Shown here: one piece after another, positions 524-9,890 of the stretch | Numbering within the stretch: position 1 is the stretch's first letter | Layout: every line of letters begins with the position of its first letter | Origin: Chloroflexota bacterium | Lineage (GTDB): Bacteria; Chloroflexota; Anaerolineae; CG2-30-64-16 | NCBI GenBank assembly: GCA_029555885.1 | Contig: JAKPQT010000732.1 | Location: 1 to 10,124 of the forward strand | Direction: 5' to 3' | Length of the DNA stretch: 10,124 nt | Translations under genes and position numbers: made by a program | Notes under the pieces: generated by a model | Databases searched by the model: none | The model's input: only the letters and a program-made list of their open reading frames with translations | What the model was told of the DNA's origin: nothing

Positions 524-531
524 TCACCTCC
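524..531 (-). promoter_or_regulatory. Shine-Dalgarno overlapping the stop codon of the upstream gene
   Basis: On the minus strand this reads GGAGGTGA, and its last three bases are the TGA stop of the serine hydrolase. The ATG of the membrane-protein gene follows 3 nt later (520). Ribosomes terminating on the hydrolase therefore sit on the next gene's initiation site, which suggests termination-reinitiation coupling. This site decides the start of the membrane-protein gene. Confidence 0.8.
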
Positions 532-2053
532 AGCGGATCGAGCTCCGTTCACCAATCAGTGTCTCGCGTGTGCAAGCCAGCATCCGCACCGCCATGCGCG
601 GATGCCGATGAGCGCGGGGAACAGACAACAACGCCAAAGCGAAGAGGCCCCACACGGCTGCGAGGCCGCCGCCGAGCTTCGAAACCCAGGCCAGATCAGG
701 CATGTACAAATCGAGAAAGCGCAGCAGGCCGGTGGACCGCAGGGAGAGCAGGCCTGCCGTCAGGGCAAGGTTGGGTATCAGCGGGGGTAAGATATGCCGG
801 ACCCACACGCGTCCGCCGGAGGGCCGCAGCAGTGGGTTGCGCTGCCAGCGTCGCAACAGTCGTAACCCCGCGCCGATACTGGCGACTTGCAGCAGCGGAA
901 TCAGAGGCGCAGCGCGAAAGATCCAGGGCAGGAATCCGAGCTGGATTGGTGGGGGCTGCTGGCCGGCCAACAGAGCGGCTACGCCTTCTCCAACTTCGGT
1001 CAGGATGAACGGGAATCCATGGTCGGCATTCGTGAGCAGGACGACGCCCTTTCTTTGTTCCGGCAGCAGTGCCATAAACGAGGAGAAGTCCGGCACGTTG
1101 CCGCCGTGCGAGACCAGCGTCGTCCCTCCGAGCTGCTTGACGAACCACCCCATCCCGTACGCTTCGACCGGCGAGCCCATCACCAGTTGTTCCGCTACGC
1201 CACGGTGCAGCTCATCGATGCCCGCGCTTGAGAGCACCTGCGCGGCGCCGTAGCGCCCGCCGTTAAGCTGCGCGATCACGTAATGGGCCATGTCCTCAGA
1301 TGTGGAGATGAGGCCGCCGGCCGGCAGAGCACTGCCGGGGTATGGCAGGTGTGGCGTTGCGCGCGGGATGCCGAACCAGTAACGGTGACCCATCGCCAGG
1401 CCGTGCTCCTTTGCGACAGCCCGGGAGGTATAGGTGTGGTGCATCTTCAGGGGATCGAGGATGTGTTCCTTGATGTATGGCGCATATGGCTGTTCGCTGG
1501 CCGCTTCAATAATCAGGCCCAACAGGTTGTAGTTCAGGTTGCAGTATTGAAACGCGGTGCCGAGCGGCCGACTGAGCTTGAGGGTGGACAAGGTCCGCGC
1601 GTGACGCTCCAGGGGCTCCAGGCTTTCGTCGATGTCCGTCTGCGCAAGAGGATCACCCAGGCTCGCGGTACCTACCAGGGCGGACATGCCGCTGGTCTGA
1701 TTCATCAGATGGCGCACAGTCATCCGGGCGGAGGCCTGCGGGTCGGCCACCCGAAACCAGGGCAGGTAACGTTGAACCGGGGCGTCCAGCTCGACCCTGC
1801 CAGCTTCGACGAGCTGCATCACTGCCAGCGCAGTGAGCGACTTGGTCGTGGAGCCGAGGACGAACGGCGTCTGGGGTGTGGGCGGTTCGCCGCCGGGGTG
1901 CGCCCGGCCATACCCGCGTTGGTACGCGATCCTATCGCCTTCGACAATCGCCAGCGCAAGGCCAGGAATCCTAAGGCGTAGCATCTGCTCTGCAATGTAG
2001 GCGTCGATGGCTTGGTAGGATATTGTGCCGGAGACCGGCTGCACTACAGCCAC
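524..2053 (-). CDS. Serine hydrolase, beta-lactamase/PBP4*-like (class C fold), with C-terminal membrane module
   Basis: This 509-residue protein belongs to the class-C beta-lactamase/D-alanyl-D-alanine-peptidase-like serine hydrolases, which act on peptides, D-amino-acid peptides or esters. All three signature motifs are visible: SxxK as S68-T-T-K71 (nucleophile and general base), YxN as Y170-C-N172, and the third-box equivalent H316-G-G318. The family segment HLMNQTSG lies at 116-123. After the catalytic domain (about 10-365) come roughly 140 residues with three hydrophobic stretches (about 374-396, 422-440, 460-477), which should anchor the protein in the membrane. No signal peptide is obvious, so the side of the membrane on which the active site lies is unclear. 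The start is GTG at 2053, with AGGAGG at 2070-2065; it overlaps the end of the upstream methyltransferase gene by 10 nt. A GTG at 2044 is an alternative start. The substrate cannot be deduced. Confidence 0.9.
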   Translation of the reverse strand: MAVVQPVSGTISYQAIDAYIAEQMLRLRIPGLALAIVEGDRIAYQRGYGRAHPGGEPPTPQTPFVLGSTTKSLTALAVMQLVEAGRVELDAPVQRYLPWFRVADPQASARMTVRHLMNQTSGMSALVGTASLGDPLAQTDIDESLEPLERHARTLSTLKLSRPLGTAFQYCNLNYNLLGLIIEAASEQPYAPYIKEHILDPLKMHHTYTSRAVAKEHGLAMGHRYWFGIPRATPHLPYPGSALPAGGLISTSEDMAHYVIAQLNGGRYGAAQVLSSAGIDELHRGVAEQLVMGSPVEAYGMGWFVKQLGGTTLVSHGGNVPDFSSFMALLPEQRKGVVLLTNADHGFPFILTEVGEGVAALLAGQQPPPIQLGFLPWIFRAAPLIPLLQVASIGAGLRLLRRWQRNPLLRPSGGRVWVRHILPPLIPNLALTAGLLSLRSTGLLRFLDLYMPDLAWVSKLGGGLAAVWGLFALALLSVPRAHRHPRMAVRMLACTRETLIGERSSIRWR

Positions 2054-2499
2054 GGTATCATGAGCCTCCTGTCGTATTCATCCCAGGCGGTCCCGAAGAG
2101 CCTCGACAGGTCCTCTTCCTCTTGAGGCGCGAAGAGCCGTGACGCGATGTATAGGATGATGCCGAGCAGGAGGCCCAGCCACGAGTTCAGCAGGAAGCCA
2201 ACCCACGGCAATACAAGCAACGCCACGCTGGTGTACAGCGGGTGCTTGACCAGCGCGTATGGGCCCCCTGTGATGAGTTCTTGTCGCGGTACTTTGGTCA
2301 GGATCAGAACGACCGACCAGAGCCAGATGATCAGGCCGGGAACCAGCAGGATGATGGAGAGCACTCTCAGCGCCGGTGGTGGGCCGCCGACAGCGAAGAG
2401 TGCAGGCCGCCAGATGTTCAGGACCAGGCCGATAACCAGGAACGGCAGCGTCAGCAGCATGATATTGTCGCCGCTGCCTGCGAGTTTTTTCAGGTTCAT
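2044..2499 (-). CDS. Isoprenylcysteine carboxylmethyltransferase-like membrane methyltransferase
   Basis: This 151-residue protein is hydrophobic, with helices at about 12-30, 43-67 and 90-122. It carries the hallmark of the ICMT/PEMT/NnrU-like superfamily: GGPYALVKHPLYT at 78-90 (the G-P-Y-x-x-x-[RK]-H-P-x-Y core), followed after the last helix by an acidic EEEDL at 127-131 and a G-x-x-x-x-x-Y segment around 136-142. In characterised ICMT relatives these elements bind S-adenosylmethionine at the cytosolic membrane face. Bacterial members methylate various, mostly unknown, lipophilic or thiol substrates, so the substrate here is undefined. The start ATG at 2499 has GGAGG 6 nt upstream and overlaps the TGA of the alpha/beta hydrolase by 4 nt (ATGA). 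It lies in the middle of the left operon. Confidence 0.88.
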   Translation of the reverse strand: MNLKKLAGSGDNIMLLTLPFLVIGLVLNIWRPALFAVGGPPPALRVLSIILLVPGLIIWLWSVVLILTKVPRQELITGGPYALVKHPLYTSVALLVLPWVGFLLNSWLGLLLGIILYIASRLFAPQEEEDLSRLFGTAWDEYDRRLMIPWL

Positions 2500-3341
2500 G
2501 CGTTGCCTCCAATCGTGAGGAAATCCCTGATGACCGGGAAAACTTGTGCGGGTTGTTCCTCATGCGGGCTGTGACCGGCGCGCTCGACTAGCACCAATTG
2601 TGCATTCGGCAGACGGTCCGCCAGGATCGCCTGGTGCTCCGGCGGGAAGAGGAAATCGTAGCGTCCAGCGATCACCAGCGTGGGCGCCTGGATTTTGCCG
2701 AGCCGGTCCATGACCGACCAGCCGTCGAGCAGTTGGGCGTAGCCGTGGATGAGGGCCTCGGGCCGGTACATCAAGCGCGGTCCCACGACCATTTCGCGGA
2801 GGATACCGAACGGATTGAGATGGTAGTAGTACGCGCTCATAAACCGCATGATGGTGGAGAAGAACTCATCAGGTGTGATCTTACCGCTGTAGAAACGCCG
2901 GGCCGCCTGCACCGCGCCGGCACGGTAGCCGCGCTTCGCCAGGATTTCCGGCGCATGTTGACTCACCCATTGCTGGTCGCCGCCCGTGTCCATCAAGATG
3001 AGATGCGAGAGTCTGTGCGGGTAGCGCAGCGCATACTCCAGGGCGACGTTCCCGCCGAAAGAGTGTCCCAGTACCGCCCACTTCTCGAAGTCGAGCGCCT
3101 CGCGCAGCGCATCCGCGTCGGCAGTCAGGTTCTCCCACGTCATGGTACTCATCGCCGCCCCATCCGAGCGGCCATTGCATCGGTGGTCATAGAAGACCAG
3201 GGTGAATTGGTCCGCCAGGGCTTCCAGGGGCAGGAGGGTAGTGTGATCCAGGCCAGGGCCGCCATGCATGAGCACCAGCGGATAGCCGTGGCCGCTGACT
3301 TTTACGAAGAGTGACACATCGCGTACAGACATGAGCGCCAT
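2496..3341 (-). CDS. Alpha/beta hydrolase, proline iminopeptidase-like
   Basis: This 281-residue protein has a complete alpha/beta-hydrolase layout and the usual length for the family. The oxyanion motif HGGPG is at 26-30 and the YDHRxxGRSDG segment at 51-61. The nucleophile elbow G-H-S94-F-G-G spans 92-97. The acid is D229 in AGRYD (225-229), and the base is H257 in AGHSPHEE (255-262). HGGPG is typical of proline iminopeptidases (peptidase S33) and their esterase/amidase relatives, so peptide, amide or ester hydrolysis is equally possible. A cap region lies at about 125-210. There is no signal peptide, so it is probably cytosolic. The ATG at 3341 has AGGAGG 11 nt upstream; a second ATG three codons later is an alternative. 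The gene overlaps the next one (methyltransferase) by 4 nt and lies 35 nt after the small membrane protein gene. Confidence 0.9.
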   Translation of the reverse strand: MALMSVRDVSLFVKVSGHGYPLVLMHGGPGLDHTTLLPLEALADQFTLVFYDHRCNGRSDGAAMSTMTWENLTADADALREALDFEKWAVLGHSFGGNVALEYALRYPHRLSHLILMDTGGDQQWVSQHAPEILAKRGYRAGAVQAARRFYSGKITPDEFFSTIMRFMSAYYYHLNPFGILREMVVGPRLMYRPEALIHGYAQLLDGWSVMDRLGKIQAPTLVIAGRYDFLFPPEHQAILADRLPNAQLVLVERAGHSPHEEQPAQVFPVIRDFLTIGGNA

Positions 3342-3837: not shown

Positions 3838-6800
3838 CTAATCGCCAGTCGCTTCGGTTGGGGGTTGCAGTTTGGCGAGGCTGCGCTCCAGCCGCGTGCG
3901 GGCCGGGGCGAGCGACTGGTCACATTCGGTGGCGCGGGCAAAGGCGATATCGGCTTGCTCGGTTTCGCCCCGGGCGAGGTGCGCCATCGCCAGTGCAAAC
4001 AGGGCCGTGGGCGAGCGGGGGGTGAGTGCGATGGCCGCCTCTGCTGTCTGGAGTGCCTGGTCCAGGGCCGCGGCGGCTGCCGCCTGGTCTCCGGTCCGAG
4101 CCAGGGCGTAACTGCGGCGGATGTGCAGGGAGACTTCGAGCATCTTGGCATTCTCGGTGGGCAGGCCGGCCAGGTACTGCGCGATGTGCGGCAGGGCGGC
4201 TTCGTAGTGGGCCAGGGCCTGAGCAGCATTTCCGGCGCGCAGCTCCAGGTTTCCAAGCCCGGCGCGGGCGTCTACATTGGCGTCATTGGCGGCTAGCGCC
4301 AGCTCGAACTCGCCGCCCGCGGCAAAGAGCCGTTCTTGCGCGTAGTCGATCTGGCCCAGTGCGGTATGAATCAGCGACATGACATAACCGGTGGGGACGT
4401 GGCCCGCCTCGATGAGCTGCTGGTAGGTCCGCGTGGCCTCATCCCACTGCTCGTTGCGCACGAAGTGCTCGGCCAGCGTCAGGTGCGCCAGCCAGTCCTC
4501 GGCCGGTGCAGCCGCCAGCTCAGCATACAGGTTTTCGGCATCTGCCGTGCGCCCCTGGGCCTCGTATAGCGTAGGCAGGGGCGTGCGATAGGCTGCCGAC
4601 AAACCGGCCGCGGTTGCCATCGCCTGCACTGCTACATTGACCCGGCACTGGCGATAGGCAGCATCCGCCAGGCCTGCGTACGCCTCGGCGTTGTTTGCAT
4701 CGCTCGCCAGCGCCGCCTGAAACGCTGCCTCCGCTTGGGCCAGATCGCCCCGGCTGGCATACAGGCTGCCCAGTCGCACCTGATAGCGCGGCTCCTGCGG
4801 ATCCAGTTCGGCTGCCCGTTCGTACTGCGAGATGGCCCCGGTTAGTTCGCCCTGTTGCAACAGGATGCCCCCCAGTTGGCTCCGGGCCAGCGCATTGTCT
4901 TCCAGCGCCAACGCCCGCTCAAAGGCCGCCGCCGCGTCCGCCAGCTGGCCCTGTTGCTGCTGCGCGTTGCCGAGGCTTTGCCACGCTAATACCGCGGAAG
5001 GGTCGAGTGCCACGGCAGCCTGATAGTGGGCAATGGCCGCATCCAACTCACCGAGCTGCTGCCGCGCGCTGCCGGCCAGGATGTGGGTATTGGCGTCATC
5101 GGATAGCGCGAGCGATGCTTCGTAGGCTGCGGCCGCCTCCTGCCACTGTTCCAGATTCAGGCGAACGTCTCCCAGCAGCGCATGGGTCGTGGGATCGTCC
5201 GGCGCCAGGCGCACCGCGGCTTCTGCCGCGGGCAGGGCCGCTGTCGCATCATCCAGGCTGAGGCGGGTCTCGGCCAGCAGGCGTTGGGCTTCGAGCATGT
5301 CCGGCGCACGGTTCGCGGCCTCCTGCGCAGCCTGGGCGGCCGTCGCCATCTCCCCGATCTCGTAGCGCAGGCCCGCCAGGACATACCAGGCGTCGGCGTT
5401 GGTCGAATCCAACGACAGCGCGGTTTCGTAGGCGGCTGCGGCCTTGGCGTAGTCGCCTTGGTCGAAGTACAGGCCGCCCAGGAGCAGGTGGGGTGCAGGG
5501 TCGCATTGCGACAGCCGGGCCGCTGTTTCCTGGGAGGCAATGGCGCCGTTCAGGTCGCCGGTCTGTGCCTGGATCAGGCCGGTCAGGAGGTGCGCGGCAG
5601 GGTCCTCCGGTGCGAGCGTGGCGGCCTCGCGATATTCGGCCAGGGCAGGCTCCAGCTCGCCCTGCCAGTAATACGCATTGCCGAGGCCCCGGTGCGCGGT
5701 GGCCGACTCAGGCCGCAGGCGCGCGGCCTCCTGGTAAGCGGCAATGGCCTCGGGATACCGGCTGGCGCCCACGTAGGCATCGCCCAGGGTGAGCTGCAGG
5801 GTGTAGGCGTCCGCACCCTCCTGCGCCAGTGCTCGCTGTACGAGGTCGATGGCCCGCTGGCTGGACTGGGCTGCTGCGCTCTGCTGGCCTAGGGCCGCCT
5901 GCACCGTCGCCAGCAACTGGTAGGTCAAGGCATCCTGGTCATCGTAACTGACGGCCCCTTGCAGCGCCGCCAGCGCATCCTCGTGTCGCCCCGCCTGCTG
6001 GTAGAGGCTGCCCAGCAAGCGCAGCGCCTTGGCATGGTCCGGCTGCAGGCGCGCCGCCGTCTCGGCCTCAACCAGGGCACGTGCGAGGCCGTCGGGCGGC
6101 TCGCAGCCGCTGGCATAGGCAATCGCCAGGTTGTAATGCGCCTCCATGAAGTTGGCGTCGAGCTCGATGGCCCGTTCCAGGTCCGCGGTGGCTTCTGACG
6201 CTCGCCCCAGTGCTTGCAGGGTGACAGCCCGCTGGAAGTAGACCTGCTCCAGTCCGCGGACGGTGTCGCCCGTGGCCGCGGCGTTGGCTAAGGACCGGTC
6301 GAACAATGCGAGGGCATCCTCGTATTGGCCATCCGCGACGAGCCCCGTGGCAAGCATCGCTGTGACCAGATAGGTGATTTGCTGTGGACCATTGGCTGCA
6401 AACAGTTCCAGGTCGGTCGTGGACAGCGGCACCCGAGAGAGCTGGGAAGGGTCCGCGACGCGGGACGGGCCGGCCTCCTGCAGCCGCGCCAGGGCAGGGC
6501 GGGGTGTGCCGAGGAGCGCCTGGGGCAGGGATGCCGGTTGTCCGAGGTGCGGCTGGCGCAGAAACTCGACGTGCGGGGTCACGCCAAAGTCATCATACGC
6601 GCCCCAGATGACCATCGTGGCCTTCGCACGTTGGCCGGCGGCCCGCGCTGCATCGGCATCGGCGTAGGTCTCCAGCGTGCGGCGCACCGCAACGTCGTCA
6701 CGGATATCAGTCAATTGGTCGATGAGCTCCGAGCCGATGCGCTGAGCGAAGTCGCCCTTGCGACTGGCGCTGGTTCCGTCGAAGTCGGCAATGAGGACCA

Positions 6801-8193
6801 GGAAGCCCTCCGGCGGCCTCAGCCGTTGGTAAAGCGTGTAGCCACCCCAACCCGCGCCCGCAAGCAAGATCACAACCACAGAGAGTACGGCCTGACGGCG
6901 CCGCGTTGCGGAGGTCGTGCGGAAGGCGACACGCGCGGACAGCAGCGCGGCGCCTGCCAGCAACGCGGCCACGACATACGGCAGCCAGCGACCGACGAGC
7001 GCAGCCGGCTTGGAGATCAGGCTGATGGTGCCGATGATGAATTGCAGGCTGGCGAGCAGGATTCCGATGGCGCCCATCGCGGCGGCCCACCGGCTGCGTG
7101 ACTCCTGCGGCGTCTCTTCGGCGGGCACAGGGCTTTTGCCGATGAGCGGCGCAAAGATGTTCGCCATCTTCAGCAGGCCGGTCAGCCAGGGAGTCTCGCG
7201 CTCGACATGCGAGGGTGTGCCAGGCACACCCCCGATGGCAGCGGGTGCAGCGGGCGGCGACACTTGGGTGGCCTTGGCGTGCGCGGGTTGTGCTTCTTGC
7301 GTCGCGGCCGCCTCCACAAGCGTCGCTGCTTCGGCTGACACCATCGCGCCATCCGCTGTGACCTCGCCCGGCAATGCCTTACGGAAGGCTGCCGCGAGTT
7401 CGCGGACGGAGGCGTAACGTTGGTCCGGCTGTTTGGCCAGAGCCTTGAGCAGGACGGCCTGCATGCCTTCCGGCACCTGCGGATTCAGTGAACGGGGCGG
7501 CGGCGGCGGGGTGTTCACGTGCTGCATGAGCAGAGTGGTGGGTGAGTCCGCCTGGAACGGCGGCCGGCCCGTGACCATCTCGTAGAGCACCACGCCCAGC
7601 GCATACTGGTCAGCACGACCGTCCACGCTCGTGCCGAGCGCCTGCTCTGGGGCCATATAGGCCGGACTGCCGACAATCTGCCCGGTGGTGGTGAGCTGGT
7701 TGGCATCGCCCAGCAGCCGCGCGATGCCGAAGTCGGTCAGCACGGGGTCGTTCTCGATAGTAAACAGGATGTTGCCGGGCTTGATGTCGCGATGGATGGC
7801 TCCGCGGCTGTGGGCGTAGTCCAGCGCCCCGGCCAGTGCATCGAGGATGGCTGCGGCGTCACGGAGCGGCAGGGTCTGGTGACGGCTGCGGAGGTCGGCC
7901 AGCCGGTCCTTGAGGGCACCGCCGGGCAGGTACTCCATGACCATATAGGGCTTGCCATCGGCCACGCCAAAGTCGTAGACCTGGACGATGTGTGGATGGC
8001 GCAGGCTGGCTACGAGGCGGGCCTCACGGCGAAACCGTTCCTCGAAGCCCGGTTCACTGCTCATGGCCGGCAGGATAACCTTGATGGCAACGCTGCGTTC
8101 TAGCTCGCGATCATAGCCCTCGTAGACCTCAGCCATGCCGCCGCGCCCCAGCAAGCGAACGATGGTGTATTCGTTGAGCGTTTCTGGCGTCAT
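3838..8193 (-). CDS. Transmembrane Ser/Thr protein kinase (PknB type) with large C-terminal TPR array
   Basis: This 1451-residue protein opens with a complete Hanks-type kinase domain (about 9-270). It has a glycine loop GRGGMAEVY (16-24), K38 in VAIK, the helix-C glutamate E57, H134-R-D136 with KPGN (138-141), D154-F-G, APE at 181-183 and the closing R259. The activation loop holds TTTG (168-171) and GSPAYM, likely autophosphorylation sites. An Ala/Pro linker leads to three hydrophobic segments (about 371-393, 403-424, 435-456). Residues about 463-545 form an alpha/beta stretch with FLVLIADFDG and MVIWGAYDDFG, reminiscent of TolB/CsgG-like N-terminal domains in other TPR proteins. From about 603 to 1437 there are roughly 20 TPR units. 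With the kinase inside, three membrane passes would place the TPR tail outside. The ATG overlaps the FHA-hydrolase stop by 4 nt (ATGA), indicating translational coupling. Kinase identity is near certain; the ligand or partner of the TPR tail is unknown. Confidence 0.95.
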   Translation of the reverse strand: MTPETLNEYTIVRLLGRGGMAEVYEGYDRELERSVAIKVILPAMSSEPGFEERFRREARLVASLRHPHIVQVYDFGVADGKPYMVMEYLPGGALKDRLADLRSRHQTLPLRDAAAILDALAGALDYAHSRGAIHRDIKPGNILFTIENDPVLTDFGIARLLGDANQLTTTGQIVGSPAYMAPEQALGTSVDGRADQYALGVVLYEMVTGRPPFQADSPTTLLMQHVNTPPPPPRSLNPQVPEGMQAVLLKALAKQPDQRYASVRELAAAFRKALPGEVTADGAMVSAEAATLVEAAATQEAQPAHAKATQVSPPAAPAAIGGVPGTPSHVERETPWLTGLLKMANIFAPLIGKSPVPAEETPQESRSRWAAAMGAIGILLASLQFIIGTISLISKPAALVGRWLPYVVAALLAGAALLSARVAFRTTSATRRRQAVLSVVVILLAGAGWGGYTLYQRLRPPEGFLVLIADFDGTSASRKGDFAQRIGSELIDQLTDIRDDVAVRRTLETYADADAARAAGQRAKATMVIWGAYDDFGVTPHVEFLRQPHLGQPASLPQALLGTPRPALARLQEAGPSRVADPSQLSRVPLSTTDLELFAANGPQQITYLVTAMLATGLVADGQYEDALALFDRSLANAAATGDTVRGLEQVYFQRAVTLQALGRASEATADLERAIELDANFMEAHYNLAIAYASGCEPPDGLARALVEAETAARLQPDHAKALRLLGSLYQQAGRHEDALAALQGAVSYDDQDALTYQLLATVQAALGQQSAAAQSSQRAIDLVQRALAQEGADAYTLQLTLGDAYVGASRYPEAIAAYQEAARLRPESATAHRGLGNAYYWQGELEPALAEYREAATLAPEDPAAHLLTGLIQAQTGDLNGAIASQETAARLSQCDPAPHLLLGGLYFDQGDYAKAAAAYETALSLDSTNADAWYVLAGLRYEIGEMATAAQAAQEAANRAPDMLEAQRLLAETRLSLDDATAALPAAEAAVRLAPDDPTTHALLGDVRLNLEQWQEAAAAYEASLALSDDANTHILAGSARQQLGELDAAIAHYQAAVALDPSAVLAWQSLGNAQQQQGQLADAAAAFERALALEDNALARSQLGGILLQQGELTGAISQYERAAELDPQEPRYQVRLGSLYASRGDLAQAEAAFQAALASDANNAEAYAGLADAAYRQCRVNVAVQAMATAAGLSAAYRTPLPTLYEAQGRTADAENLYAELAAAPAEDWLAHLTLAEHFVRNEQWDEATRTYQQLIEAGHVPTGYVMSLIHTALGQIDYAQERLFAAGGEFELALAANDANVDARAGLGNLELRAGNAAQALAHYEAALPHIAQYLAGLPTENAKMLEVSLHIRRSYALARTGDQAAAAAALDQALQTAEAAIALTPRSPTALFALAMAHLARGETEQADIAFARATECDQSLAPARTRLERSLAKLQPPTEATGD
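3883..6387 (-). repeat. Tandem TPR-coding repeats (about 20 units of about 102 bp)
   Basis: This region encodes kinase-protein residues about 603-1437. Units of 34 residues recur with the TPR signature: small residues at helix A positions 8, an A at 20, A/G at 24 and P or D near 32. Typical unit ends are ARLRPES, ATLAPED, ALSLDSTN, VRLAPDD and AELDPQE. Units around 815-1170 are the most regular. Those around 760-795, 1275-1310 and 1335-1395 carry insertions that lengthen helix B or the following loop. The repeats are diverged in DNA, so this is a protein-level repeat and not a simple tandem duplication. Confidence 0.88.
6820..7083 (-). other. Three-helix membrane segment within the kinase gene
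   Basis: This stretch encodes residues 371-458. Three hydrophobic helices are separated by short loops: KPA-GRW between the first two, and a basic RTTSATRRRQ between the second and third. PknB-type kinases usually have one membrane helix. An odd number keeps the kinase inside and the TPR part outside. The basic loop between helices 2 and 3 should be cytosolic by the positive-inside rule, which fits the N-terminus being inside. Confidence 0.7.
8190..8193 (-). promoter_or_regulatory. ATGA stop/start overlap coupling FHA-hydrolase and kinase genes
   Basis: On the minus strand the four bases ATGA contain both the kinase start (ATG) and the FHA-hydrolase stop (TGA). Upstream of the kinase start there is only a distant, weak AAGGTAG, which favours initiation by ribosomes finishing the first gene and hence fixed-ratio synthesis of the two proteins. 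Confidence 0.8.
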
Positions 8194-9890
8194 CGCGTCA
8201 ACTCTACCTTAAGCCGTGCCTTCACATCGTTATCCACGTAGAGGGAGCCATGCCCCTGTCGCACCGGGTGGATTTCAGCGCCGGGCAGGATGGCGCTGTG
8301 TTCGGGAATGCGATTATCGCCGCCCGGTTGTGCGCGGCTGTCGAATTGAGACCATCGGCCTTCGCTCGTGCGCGCCACCGAAATCTCGGTAATCGTTTCT
8401 AGGCCGTAACCGTAGATGCAAACGGTCGGTACGCTGGAAGTCGTACCAAGCTCTGCCCTGAACTGTCGGGCCTGCCGGAGCAGGGGGATCTGGTCGTCCG
8501 CCAGCCAGATTTCGTCGGCCAGGAGGTCGATCCGCGTGCCGTTCTGGTCCATTGTGCAGGCGTAGGTGGGCAGAATCTGGTAGACCGAGGGGAATGTCTT
8601 GATGACATCGCGCAGGCGGTTGCCCATCAGGCCGAACGGCAGCAGGCTGAGGCCCCTGACCAGCTCGGAGACAATAACCGGGGTGCCTTGATGTGGTCCG
8701 CCGACCAGCAGCGCCCTGCCGATCTTGTCCTTACCGCCCAGCCGTTCGATGTAGTAGCGGCTGACCAGGGTGCCTAGGCTATGCGCGATGAGGGTGATCG
8801 GGGGCGTCATGTTCCAGGCTTCGATGGCCTCCGCGAGCCGCCGCGCCGACTCGCGCACATCCAGCCGCCAGTCGTAGGCGAACTCGAACAGGTCACGGCC
8901 GCGCGCATATCCCAGGGCTTCCTCCAGGAAGTCGCCGGCCCGGCTGTACTGCTCCTGCTCCAGGAAGTGGGGTACGATAACCACTTCGCCCACGATGCCG
9001 CGGGCTTCCAGGTGGTCCCGTTCCGGCAAGCTGAAGAGCTCCGGCTCGCTGAAGAGCAGGCGGACGTTGGGCCAGATGCGCTCGTTGCCCAGCCATAACT
9101 GCGAACCCATCAAGCCGGGCACGATGACGACCGGGGGGCGGCTCCGGTGAGCGCTGCGGGTGGCAGCCGCATCGAGCAAGGTGAGATCGTCGGGCGCTGT
9201 CGCCTGCTTGAAGACGAGTTGGGCTGGCCCGATGCTGACCGTGTCACCGTTCTGCAGCAGATGTTCTGCGACTTTCCGGCCCGCGACATAGGTGCCGTTG
9301 GTGCTGTCCAGGTCGCGCAGCCAGAACCGGTCTCCGCGCCGCTCGATAGCGGCATGTTGGCGCGAAACCTGCGCGAGGTTGAGGGGAATATCGTTGTTCG
9401 CCTGGCGGCCGATGGTCAGGCGGTCTCCGAGAATCGGCGTCTCCCATGTGGACGCTCCGCCGCCAAGAGCCGGCGCGTGGATCGCCAGGCGAGCAACGCG
9501 CGTGTCACTGATCTGCATGGGCACGGTTGCCGCCGCCAACGTTGCCTCCAGATCGGCCGGCGTATCGATGACCGCGGGCACCGCAGCGATCGACTCCGCG
9601 CCCAGGTGCAGCAAGCTATCGCCGATTCGTATCACATCGCCAGGCTGAACGGTCACGGGGCCTTGAATACGCTGCTCATTGAGCCAGGTGCCGTTGGCAG
9701 AGGCCAAGTCGGTCAACGTCCAGCCTTGATTGTGCCAGGCCAATCGCGCATGGGTGCGCGATGCTCTGGGATCGGCAAGGATGATATCGTTGGTCGCGCC
9801 GCGACCGAGGGTAATATCGGCCTCAGTGAGGAGCACGCTGCGTTCGGTGCCCAGCGCGCTCCCGATGGTCAGCGTGGCTGTGGGTTGCAT
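8190..9890 (-). CDS. Tandem FHA-domain protein fused to an LCAT-like alpha/beta-hydrolase (lipase/acyltransferase)
   Basis: This is a 566-residue soluble protein. FHA domain 1 (about 5-97) has G29-R30, S44-R-T-H47 and N66-G67. FHA domain 2 (about 135-230) has G161-R162, S176-R-Q-H179 and N198-G199. These are the residues that bind phosphothreonine in FHA domains, and both domains look intact. A short linker leads to an alpha/beta-hydrolase (about 252-566) of lecithin:cholesterol-acyltransferase type: VPGLMGSQLW (257-266), the YDWR segment (339-342), nucleophile S371 in AHSLG, GGPHQGTP (397-404), a likely acid D525 in GGDNRIP and a likely base H547. Such enzymes hydrolyse or transfer acyl chains of phospholipids or other esters. 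No signal peptide is visible, so it is inferred to be cytosolic. The start ATG at 9890 has GGGGAGG 10 nt upstream. Its stop overlaps the kinase start, making the kinase the natural source of the phosphothreonine its FHA domains read. Confidence 0.92.
   Translation of the reverse strand: MQPTATLTIGSALGTERSVLLTEADITLGRGATNDIILADPRASRTHARLAWHNQGWTLTDLASANGTWLNEQRIQGPVTVQPGDVIRIGDSLLHLGAESIAAVPAVIDTPADLEATLAAATVPMQISDTRVARLAIHAPALGGGASTWETPILGDRLTIGRQANNDIPLNLAQVSRQHAAIERRGDRFWLRDLDSTNGTYVAGRKVAEHLLQNGDTVSIGPAQLVFKQATAPDDLTLLDAAATRSAHRSRPPVVIVPGLMGSQLWLGNERIWPNVRLLFSEPELFSLPERDHLEARGIVGEVVIVPHFLEQEQYSRAGDFLEEALGYARGRDLFEFAYDWRLDVRESARRLAEAIEAWNMTPPITLIAHSLGTLVSRYYIERLGGKDKIGRALLVGGPHQGTPVIVSELVRGLSLLPFGLMGNRLRDVIKTFPSVYQILPTYACTMDQNGTRIDLLADEIWLADDQIPLLRQARQFRAELGTTSSVPTVCIYGYGLETITEISVARTSEGRWSQFDSRAQPGGDNRIPEHSAILPGAEIHPVRQGHGSLYVDNDVKARLKVELTR

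What the first reader, a model, noticed from the sequence alone, without database searches (positions are those of the whole stretch)
3838..9890. Two-gene coupled module: FHA-lipase plus transmembrane TPR kinase, a candidate phospho-controlled membrane-lipid system
The ATGA overlap forces co-production of a phosphothreonine reader/lipase and a threonine kinase. This suggests a self-contained pathway: TPR sensor outside, kinase inside, autophosphorylated kinase docking the FHA-lipase, and lipid remodelling as output. I know of no described system with this exact composition.
Basis: inference. Interest (0 to 1): 0.75.

Follow-up and report, generated by a model that had tools for sequence, protein, structure and literature searches.

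The report
Kinase paired with phosphothreonine-reading lipase-like enzyme
In some Chloroflexota bacteria, a lipase-like enzyme that carries two phosphothreonine-reading domains is usually encoded next to a protein kinase, much like a kinase-transporter pair known in mycobacteria, so the kinase probably controls the enzyme.

Summary
On the minus strand an FHA-FHA-LCAT-like hydrolase (9890-8190) overlaps by ATGA a transmembrane Ser/Thr kinase with a TPR array (8193-3838). The pair is conserved, not unique. Of 55 loci with this hydrolase (window included), 34 have a same-strand kinase as neighbour, 3 more have one beyond an FHA-ABC transporter gene, 4 have one on the opposite strand, and 14 have none adjacent. 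The kinases come from several lineages and carry TPR, WD40, NB-ARC-TPR or no recognised sensor. All 40 linked kinases examined keep 12 checked catalytic residues; of 10 kinases with the window's ectodomain but no such hydrolase found, 7 have lost the HRD aspartate. Both phosphothreonine pockets and the Ser-Asp-His triad are nearly invariant. A threonine between the FHA domains, T117, tracks same-strand linkage best (33 of 34 against 4 of 16), but few contrasts are independent. The plan matches mycobacterial PknF-Rv1747 with the exporter replaced by a hydrolase.

The parts
8190..9890 (-). FHA-FHA-LCAT-like hydrolase, 566 aa
   Evidence: relatives; structure model
9597..9881 (-). FHA domain 1 (about residues 4-98); phosphothreonine pocket R30, S44, R45, H47, N66
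   Evidence: pocket intact in 49 of 50 readable rows (53 rows aligned); pocket roles of these residues are recalled from FHA literature
9498..9581 (-). inter-FHA linker (residues 104-131) with conserved T117 (9542-9540)
   Evidence: predicted helix 111-120 at low confidence
9204..9497 (-). FHA domain 2 (about residues 132-229); pocket R162, S176, R177, H179, N198
   Evidence: intact in 49 of 50 readable rows; structural match to GarA and OdhI FHA
8193..9143 (-). alpha/beta hydrolase domain (residues 250-566), triad S371, D525, H547
8190..8193 (-). ATGA overlap of hydrolase stop and kinase start
3838..8193 (-). transmembrane Ser/Thr kinase with TPR array, 1451 aa
7411..8169 (-). PknB-type kinase domain (residues 9-261)
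   Evidence: PknB is the best-scoring solved kinase; catalytic residues intact
6832..7071 (-). three hydrophobic segments (residues about 375-454)
   Evidence: hydropathy
6364..6831 (-). ectodomain between membrane and TPR array, alpha/beta fold
   Evidence: no structural match at E 0.001 or better, weak ones to TPR proteins and TolB
3874..6363 (-). TPR array

Best explanation
The two genes encode a dedicated kinase-effector pair. The kinase senses something through its TPR ectodomain and autophosphorylates. Its phosphothreonines recruit the cytosolic hydrolase through the FHA domains and so bring it to the membrane. The kinase then phosphorylates the hydrolase, most likely at T117 between the two FHA domains; binding of that phosphothreonine by an FHA domain (in the same or another molecule) rearranges or clusters the protein and changes hydrolysis of an acyl ester, most plausibly a membrane phospholipid. 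Shown from sequence: domain content, intact active sites, recurrent pairing, and frequent loss of kinase catalysis where the hydrolase is absent. Inferred: docking, T117 as the site, direction of control, and the substrate.
For: Pairing: same-strand neighbour in 34 of 55 loci, 41 of 55 counting 3 with an FHA-ABC gene between and 4 on the opposite strand. In a draw of 396 class genomes made without regard to kinases, 21 genomes hold 27 places, which I read as 26 genes (one split over two contigs); 18 of 26 have a same-strand kinase (one of them beyond an FHA-ABC gene) and 3 an opposite-strand one. Kinase density elsewhere in the loci is 4 in about 841 kb, and 0 in 669 kb of control loci. Recurrence: linked kinases fall into three well-separated clades and a further opposite-strand pair. 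Catalysis tracks the partner: 40 of 40 linked kinases keep all 12 checked residues; among kinases with the window's ectodomain the HRD Asp is lost in 0 of 13 linked and 7 of 10 unlinked. Pockets and triad are conserved. T117 is Thr in 33 of 34 same-strand-linked proteins and 4 of 16 others, the lowest carry-over among 121 positions conserved in the linked set. Precedent: PknF-Rv1747 (passages of PMC3908365, PMC9312465) and DgcB, whose FHA binds its own phosphopeptide (abstract of PMC6733907).
Against: T117 is not corrected for kinship: 7 of the 16 others form one clade; one linked protein has Ala (L023); four of the 16 keep Thr; D85 and S348 discriminate almost as well (0.31 and 0.38 in the 16, against 0.25 for T117). 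One clade member without the hydrolase (L191) has an intact kinase. 12 of 55 loci show no kinase (three of them with the gene near a contig end), and in 2 more it is not adjacent; FHA pockets stay intact in nearly all of these, so a distant kinase may serve. No activity was measured, and the LCAT fold does not fix the substrate. T117 lies in a low-confidence predicted helix, so its conservation could be structural. Most genomes of the phylum lack the hydrolase.
Confidence: 0.6

Rival explanations
1. The FHA domains only read phosphothreonine on the kinase (docking); T117 is not a phosphosite, and the hydrolase is regulated by location alone.
For: FHA pockets are conserved even where T117 is not. 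T117 sits in a predicted helix.
Against: T117 is Thr in 33 of 34 linked proteins within an otherwise variable linker, and in 23 of 23 rows of alignment A1.
Confidence: 0.25
2. A self-damaging defence or conflict system: the kinase senses invasion and unleashes an intracellular phospholipase on the cell's own membrane.
For: A STAND-type sensor in one partner kinase (L002, NB-ARC and TPR), an NB-ARC/cyclase gene downstream of the pair in L012, and patchy distribution (4 full-length in 400 phylum genomes).
Against: The hydrolase matches no PADLOC model; the kinase matches through its kinase domain only, in the 25 of 33 rows shown. Of 20 neighbour genes scanned with Pfam only FHA-ABC transporters recurred; the neighbours were not scanned with PADLOC. 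All 5 solved or listed FHA-hydrolase layouts examined stay the same, where conflict effectors usually vary (the latter recalled).
Confidence: 0.08
3. Ordinary co-inheritance: two unrelated genes that sit together by chance in one lineage.
For: Pairing is clustered on the hydrolase tree (5 changes); 14 of 55 loci lack an adjacent kinase.
Against: Kinases of several clades, on either side of the hydrolase gene, are paired, and kinases are rare in the flanks otherwise.
Confidence: 0.05

Closest known systems
Mycobacterium tuberculosis PknF and the FHA-ABC transporter Rv1747
   Same: Two-gene operon of a Ser/Thr kinase and an effector with FHA-linker-FHA at its N-terminus; Rv1747 is a PknF substrate in vitro and both FHA domains are needed for the two-hybrid interaction (passages of PMC3908365); phosphorylation by PknF promotes condensates (passages of PMC9312465). 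ABC relatives occur in the same locus as the Chloroflexota hydrolase in 11 of 58 loci, FHA seen in 10 of the 11.
   Different: The effector is a soluble LCAT-like hydrolase instead of an ABC exporter; the window's kinase has a TPR ectodomain and three hydrophobic segments.
GarA / OdhI with PknB / PknG
   Same: FHA protein is both docking partner and substrate of the kinase; PknG also carries TPRs (passages of PMC8546545). FHA2 is structurally closest to GarA and OdhI.
   Different: Single-FHA proteins without a catalytic domain; PknG TPRs are cytosolic (both recalled).
Bdellovibrio DgcB (FHA-GGDEF)
   Same: FHA domain fused to an enzyme, with an activating phosphopeptide from the protein itself (abstract of PMC6733907).
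   Different: Diguanylate cyclase output; gene neighbours not examined here.
Lysosomal phospholipase A2 (PLA2G15) / LCAT
   Different: Lysosomal or plasma enzymes without FHA domains (recalled); here no signal peptide is apparent.

Membership tests
PknF-Rv1747 type STPK with FHA-ABC exporter | adjacent Ser/Thr kinase gene | tested here: met
   ATGA overlap in the window; 41 of 55 loci, 34 of them direct same-strand neighbours
PknF-Rv1747 type STPK with FHA-ABC exporter | two FHA domains separated by a linker | tested here: met
PknF-Rv1747 type STPK with FHA-ABC exporter | ABC ATPase and transmembrane exporter domain in the effector | tested here: not met
   LCAT hydrolase instead; so it works like this system but is not a member
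PknF-Rv1747 type STPK with FHA-ABC exporter | threonines phosphorylated by the partner kinase | not testable with these tools
   T117 is a candidate only
LCAT / lysosomal phospholipase A2 hydrolases | Pfam LCAT above curated cutoff | tested here: met
   50.2 bits against 21
LCAT / lysosomal phospholipase A2 hydrolases | Ser-Asp-His triad in the fold | tested here: met
   S371, D525, H547 in 50 of 50 readable rows; that D525 is the acid rests on invariance and homology
LCAT / lysosomal phospholipase A2 hydrolases | phospholipase or acyltransferase activity | not testable with these tools
   no assay
PknB-type Ser/Thr kinases | complete catalytic motifs | tested here: met
PASTA kinases (NF033483) | score above curated cutoff and PASTA ectodomain | tested here: not met
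   342 bits against 450; no PASTA match among the families listed
FhaB (NF049868, Rv0019c) | curated cutoff reached by an FHA protein of that architecture | tested here: inconclusive
   128 bits against 125, but with two FHA stretches in a protein of other architecture
Catalogued anti-phage systems (PADLOC) | both proteins match a system | tested here: not met
   hydrolase no match; kinase matches confined to its kinase domain in the 25 of 33 rows shown

The most novel reading that the evidence does not exclude
A bacterial phospholipase switch run by phosphothreonine: kinases with exchangeable sensors phosphorylate T117 of a cytosolic LCAT-like enzyme, whose tandem FHA domains bind it and turn membrane-lipid hydrolysis on or off. 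The kinase's catalytic activity is kept by selection chiefly for this one client, because catalysis decays where the hydrolase is missing.
Probability: 0.3. Interest if true: 0.7.

Novelty: new variant of a known kind. Interest (0 to 1): 0.5.

Why it matters
It would add a lipid-hydrolysing enzyme to the outputs of bacterial FHA signalling (others, partly recalled: metabolism, export, transcription, second messengers), give a kinase whose client can be named from the genome, and offer a testable phosphosite. The contrast between intact linked kinases and decayed unlinked ones is an unusual comparative sign that a kinase depends on one client.

Tried and rejected
Crude gene calling (its first try failed on a file name) picked antisense shadow ORFs over some genes, so neighbourhoods were redone with tblastn. 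The ATGA overlap as a conserved feature was rejected: the gap between the genes runs from -4 to several hundred bases and the kinase may lie on either side. A conserved third gene was sought: only the ABC transporter recurs (11 of 58 loci, four of the 58 being duplicates; FHA seen in 10 of 11, L026 being cut by a contig end); the other neighbours scanned differ (20 proteins). A known fold for the ectodomain: no match at E 0.001 or better (model pLDDT 74.5). An inverted repeat in the last 245 bases of the window: none. Plasmid carriage: no plasmid record covers 80% of the hydrolase. Literature: the searches listed no paper that, from title, start of abstract or the passages opened (PMC8546545, PMC7159879, PMC10765036), describes an FHA-lipase; one search found nothing at all. 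Most subscription papers are not held, so this is weak evidence of absence.

Rows dropped: L036 from the kinase alignment (piece too short); L036, L037 and L038 from the pocket counts and L035, L037 and L152 from the triad count (fragments); L041 and L048 were not given; L187 from the Fisher table because a stop separates its kinase from its ectodomain (its motif reads HGA). L037 counts as intact at the checked residues although its gene is broken by stops. Five loci (L138, L143, L145, L147, L153) were exact duplicates and left out; near-copies remain (L024 and L144 99%, L013 and L036 93%, L012 and L016 92%). Of the 25 genomes with the ectodomain but not beside the hydrolase, 19 were opened and 6 weak ones were not. 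L184 and L195 have little sequence upstream of the kinase (531 and under 200 bases), so absence of the hydrolase there rests on the genome search (threshold 1e-100), which a fragment could escape and which incomplete genomes weaken. That searches drew the same genomes is inferred from the handle numbers.
Full report

How common. A search with the hydrolase part (residues 235-566) gave 1065 relatives among 7998 scored candidates. The best 120 are listed: 114 carry FHA, most are about 560-580 residues long, and the 8 rows that name an organism are all Chloroflexota. The protein is patchy: 4 full-length matches and one to the hydrolase part alone in 400 genomes drawn from the phylum, and 21 of 396 genomes from the class. 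Two loci labelled Acidobacteria and one labelled Actinobacteria also carry it.

Neighbourhood. Fifty-five loci (window, 42 from the scan, 12 from the draw, exact duplicates removed) were examined with tblastn. A same-strand kinase follows in 19 (within 531 bases) and precedes in 15 (within 263). In 3 it follows an FHA-ABC transporter gene. In 4 it lies next door on the opposite strand (16 to 724 bases). In 2 it is near but not adjacent, and 12 show none, three of these (L034, L041, L152) with the gene near a contig end. Restricting to the draw, which knew nothing of kinases, gives 26 genes (27 places, two of them read as halves of one gene): 18 same-strand, 3 opposite-strand, 5 none. Background: 44 kinase domains in 54 loci and 841 kb, 40 of them the partners; none in 37 loci (669 kb, mostly other phyla) around LCAT-like hydrolases without FHA.

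Which kinases. In the kinase tree (64 rows) linked kinases fall into a clade of 24 rows (support 100/98) holding the window, two further clades of 9 rows in which the kinase mostly lies upstream, and a fourth, opposite-strand pair. Their C-terminal parts differ: TPR with the window's ectodomain in 13, WD40 in L027 and L029, NB-ARC plus TPR in L002, and nothing recognised in others such as L007, L012 and L013. In 10 of 10 genomes chosen for having the TPR type, the best genome-wide match to the window kinase, out of 29 to 84 first-look candidates (29 to 58 scored), was the hydrolase neighbour. That set was picked for the pair, so this shows closeness, not frequency. So kinase domain and FHA-hydrolase go together and the sensor is exchangeable.

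Kinase decay. The window's ectodomain occurs in 36 of 396 class genomes. In 11 it is part of a kinase beside the hydrolase. Of the other 25, 19 were opened: 10 have ectodomain and kinase domain in one frame, 8 have no kinase domain in that frame, and L187 has a stop between the two. None of the 10 has a hydrolase hit in its locus or in the genome at the threshold. Of the 10, 7 have lost the catalytic Asp of HRD (L184, L188, L193, L194, L195, L196, L198); L191, L192 and L197 keep it, the last two with altered activation segments. Of 13 linked kinases with this ectodomain none has lost it (Fisher p 0.0005, not corrected for kinship; L195, L196 and L198 are one clade, so perhaps four or five independent losses). 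Inside the window's own clade, 3 of 4 unlinked kinases lack it (L184, L187, L188) against 0 of 20 linked (p 0.002). L184 is the closest relative of the window kinase in the tree (80% identity over 277 columns): HRA and DFD, and no hydrolase in the 531 bases upstream or in the genome search.

A candidate site. The linker between the FHA domains is variable but for a short motif around T117. T117 is Thr in 33 of 34 same-strand-linked proteins (including those beyond an FHA-ABC gene) and 4 of 16 others, the lowest carry-over among 121 positions conserved in the linked set (mean 0.88); D85 and S348 come next with 0.31 and 0.38. The tree built without the linker shows that seven of the 16 are one clade. 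The clearest independent contrast is two sister copies in one genome, L004 (linked, Thr) and L015 (unlinked, Ser). Against it stand L023 (linked, Ala) and L001, L002, L010 and L152 (not same-strand linked, Thr). The site is a good lead, not a result.

How it compares. Rv1747 of M. [quoted passage not shown] export of PIMs is only proposed (passages of PMC5549992). The Chloroflexota pair shares that plan with a hydrolase as output, and ABC relatives stand in the same locus in 11 of 58 loci, FHA seen in 10, so both outputs can belong to one cluster. It is not a member of the Rv1747 type because the exporter domain is absent. I call it a new variant of a known kind.

Judgement. That the two proteins work together is likely (about 0.8). 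That the kinase phosphorylates the hydrolase at T117 and so sets its activity is plausible (about 0.4). That the substrate is a membrane phospholipid rests on the fold and on presumed recruitment to the membrane alone.

Noticed in passing
L184:310-4731: Closest relative of the window kinase looks like a pseudokinase (HRA, DFD) with ectodomain and TPR array and no hydrolase gene seen beside it.
   Followed up: yes
L001, L025, L030, L139: FHA-bearing ABC-2 transporter gene directly after the FHA-hydrolase, followed by the kinase in L025, L030 and L139: a three-gene phosphosignalling cluster.
   Followed up: partly
L002:11721-14894 minus: Partner kinase carries NB-ARC and TPR domains in place of the window's ectodomain, and converges on the hydrolase gene.
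   Followed up: no
L031 and L142: One of the two FHA pockets has degenerated (FHA1 in L031, FHA2 in L142); both have the kinase on the opposite strand.
   Followed up: no
window 524-3341 minus: A separate run of overlapping genes: alpha/beta hydrolase, an isoprenylcysteine or phospholipid methyltransferase-like protein, and a protein of the beta-lactamase family (PF00144).
   Followed up: no
L188:5548-7427: A pseudokinase with the same ectodomain stands near a two-gene ABC-2 transporter in which Pfam finds no FHA.
   Followed up: no
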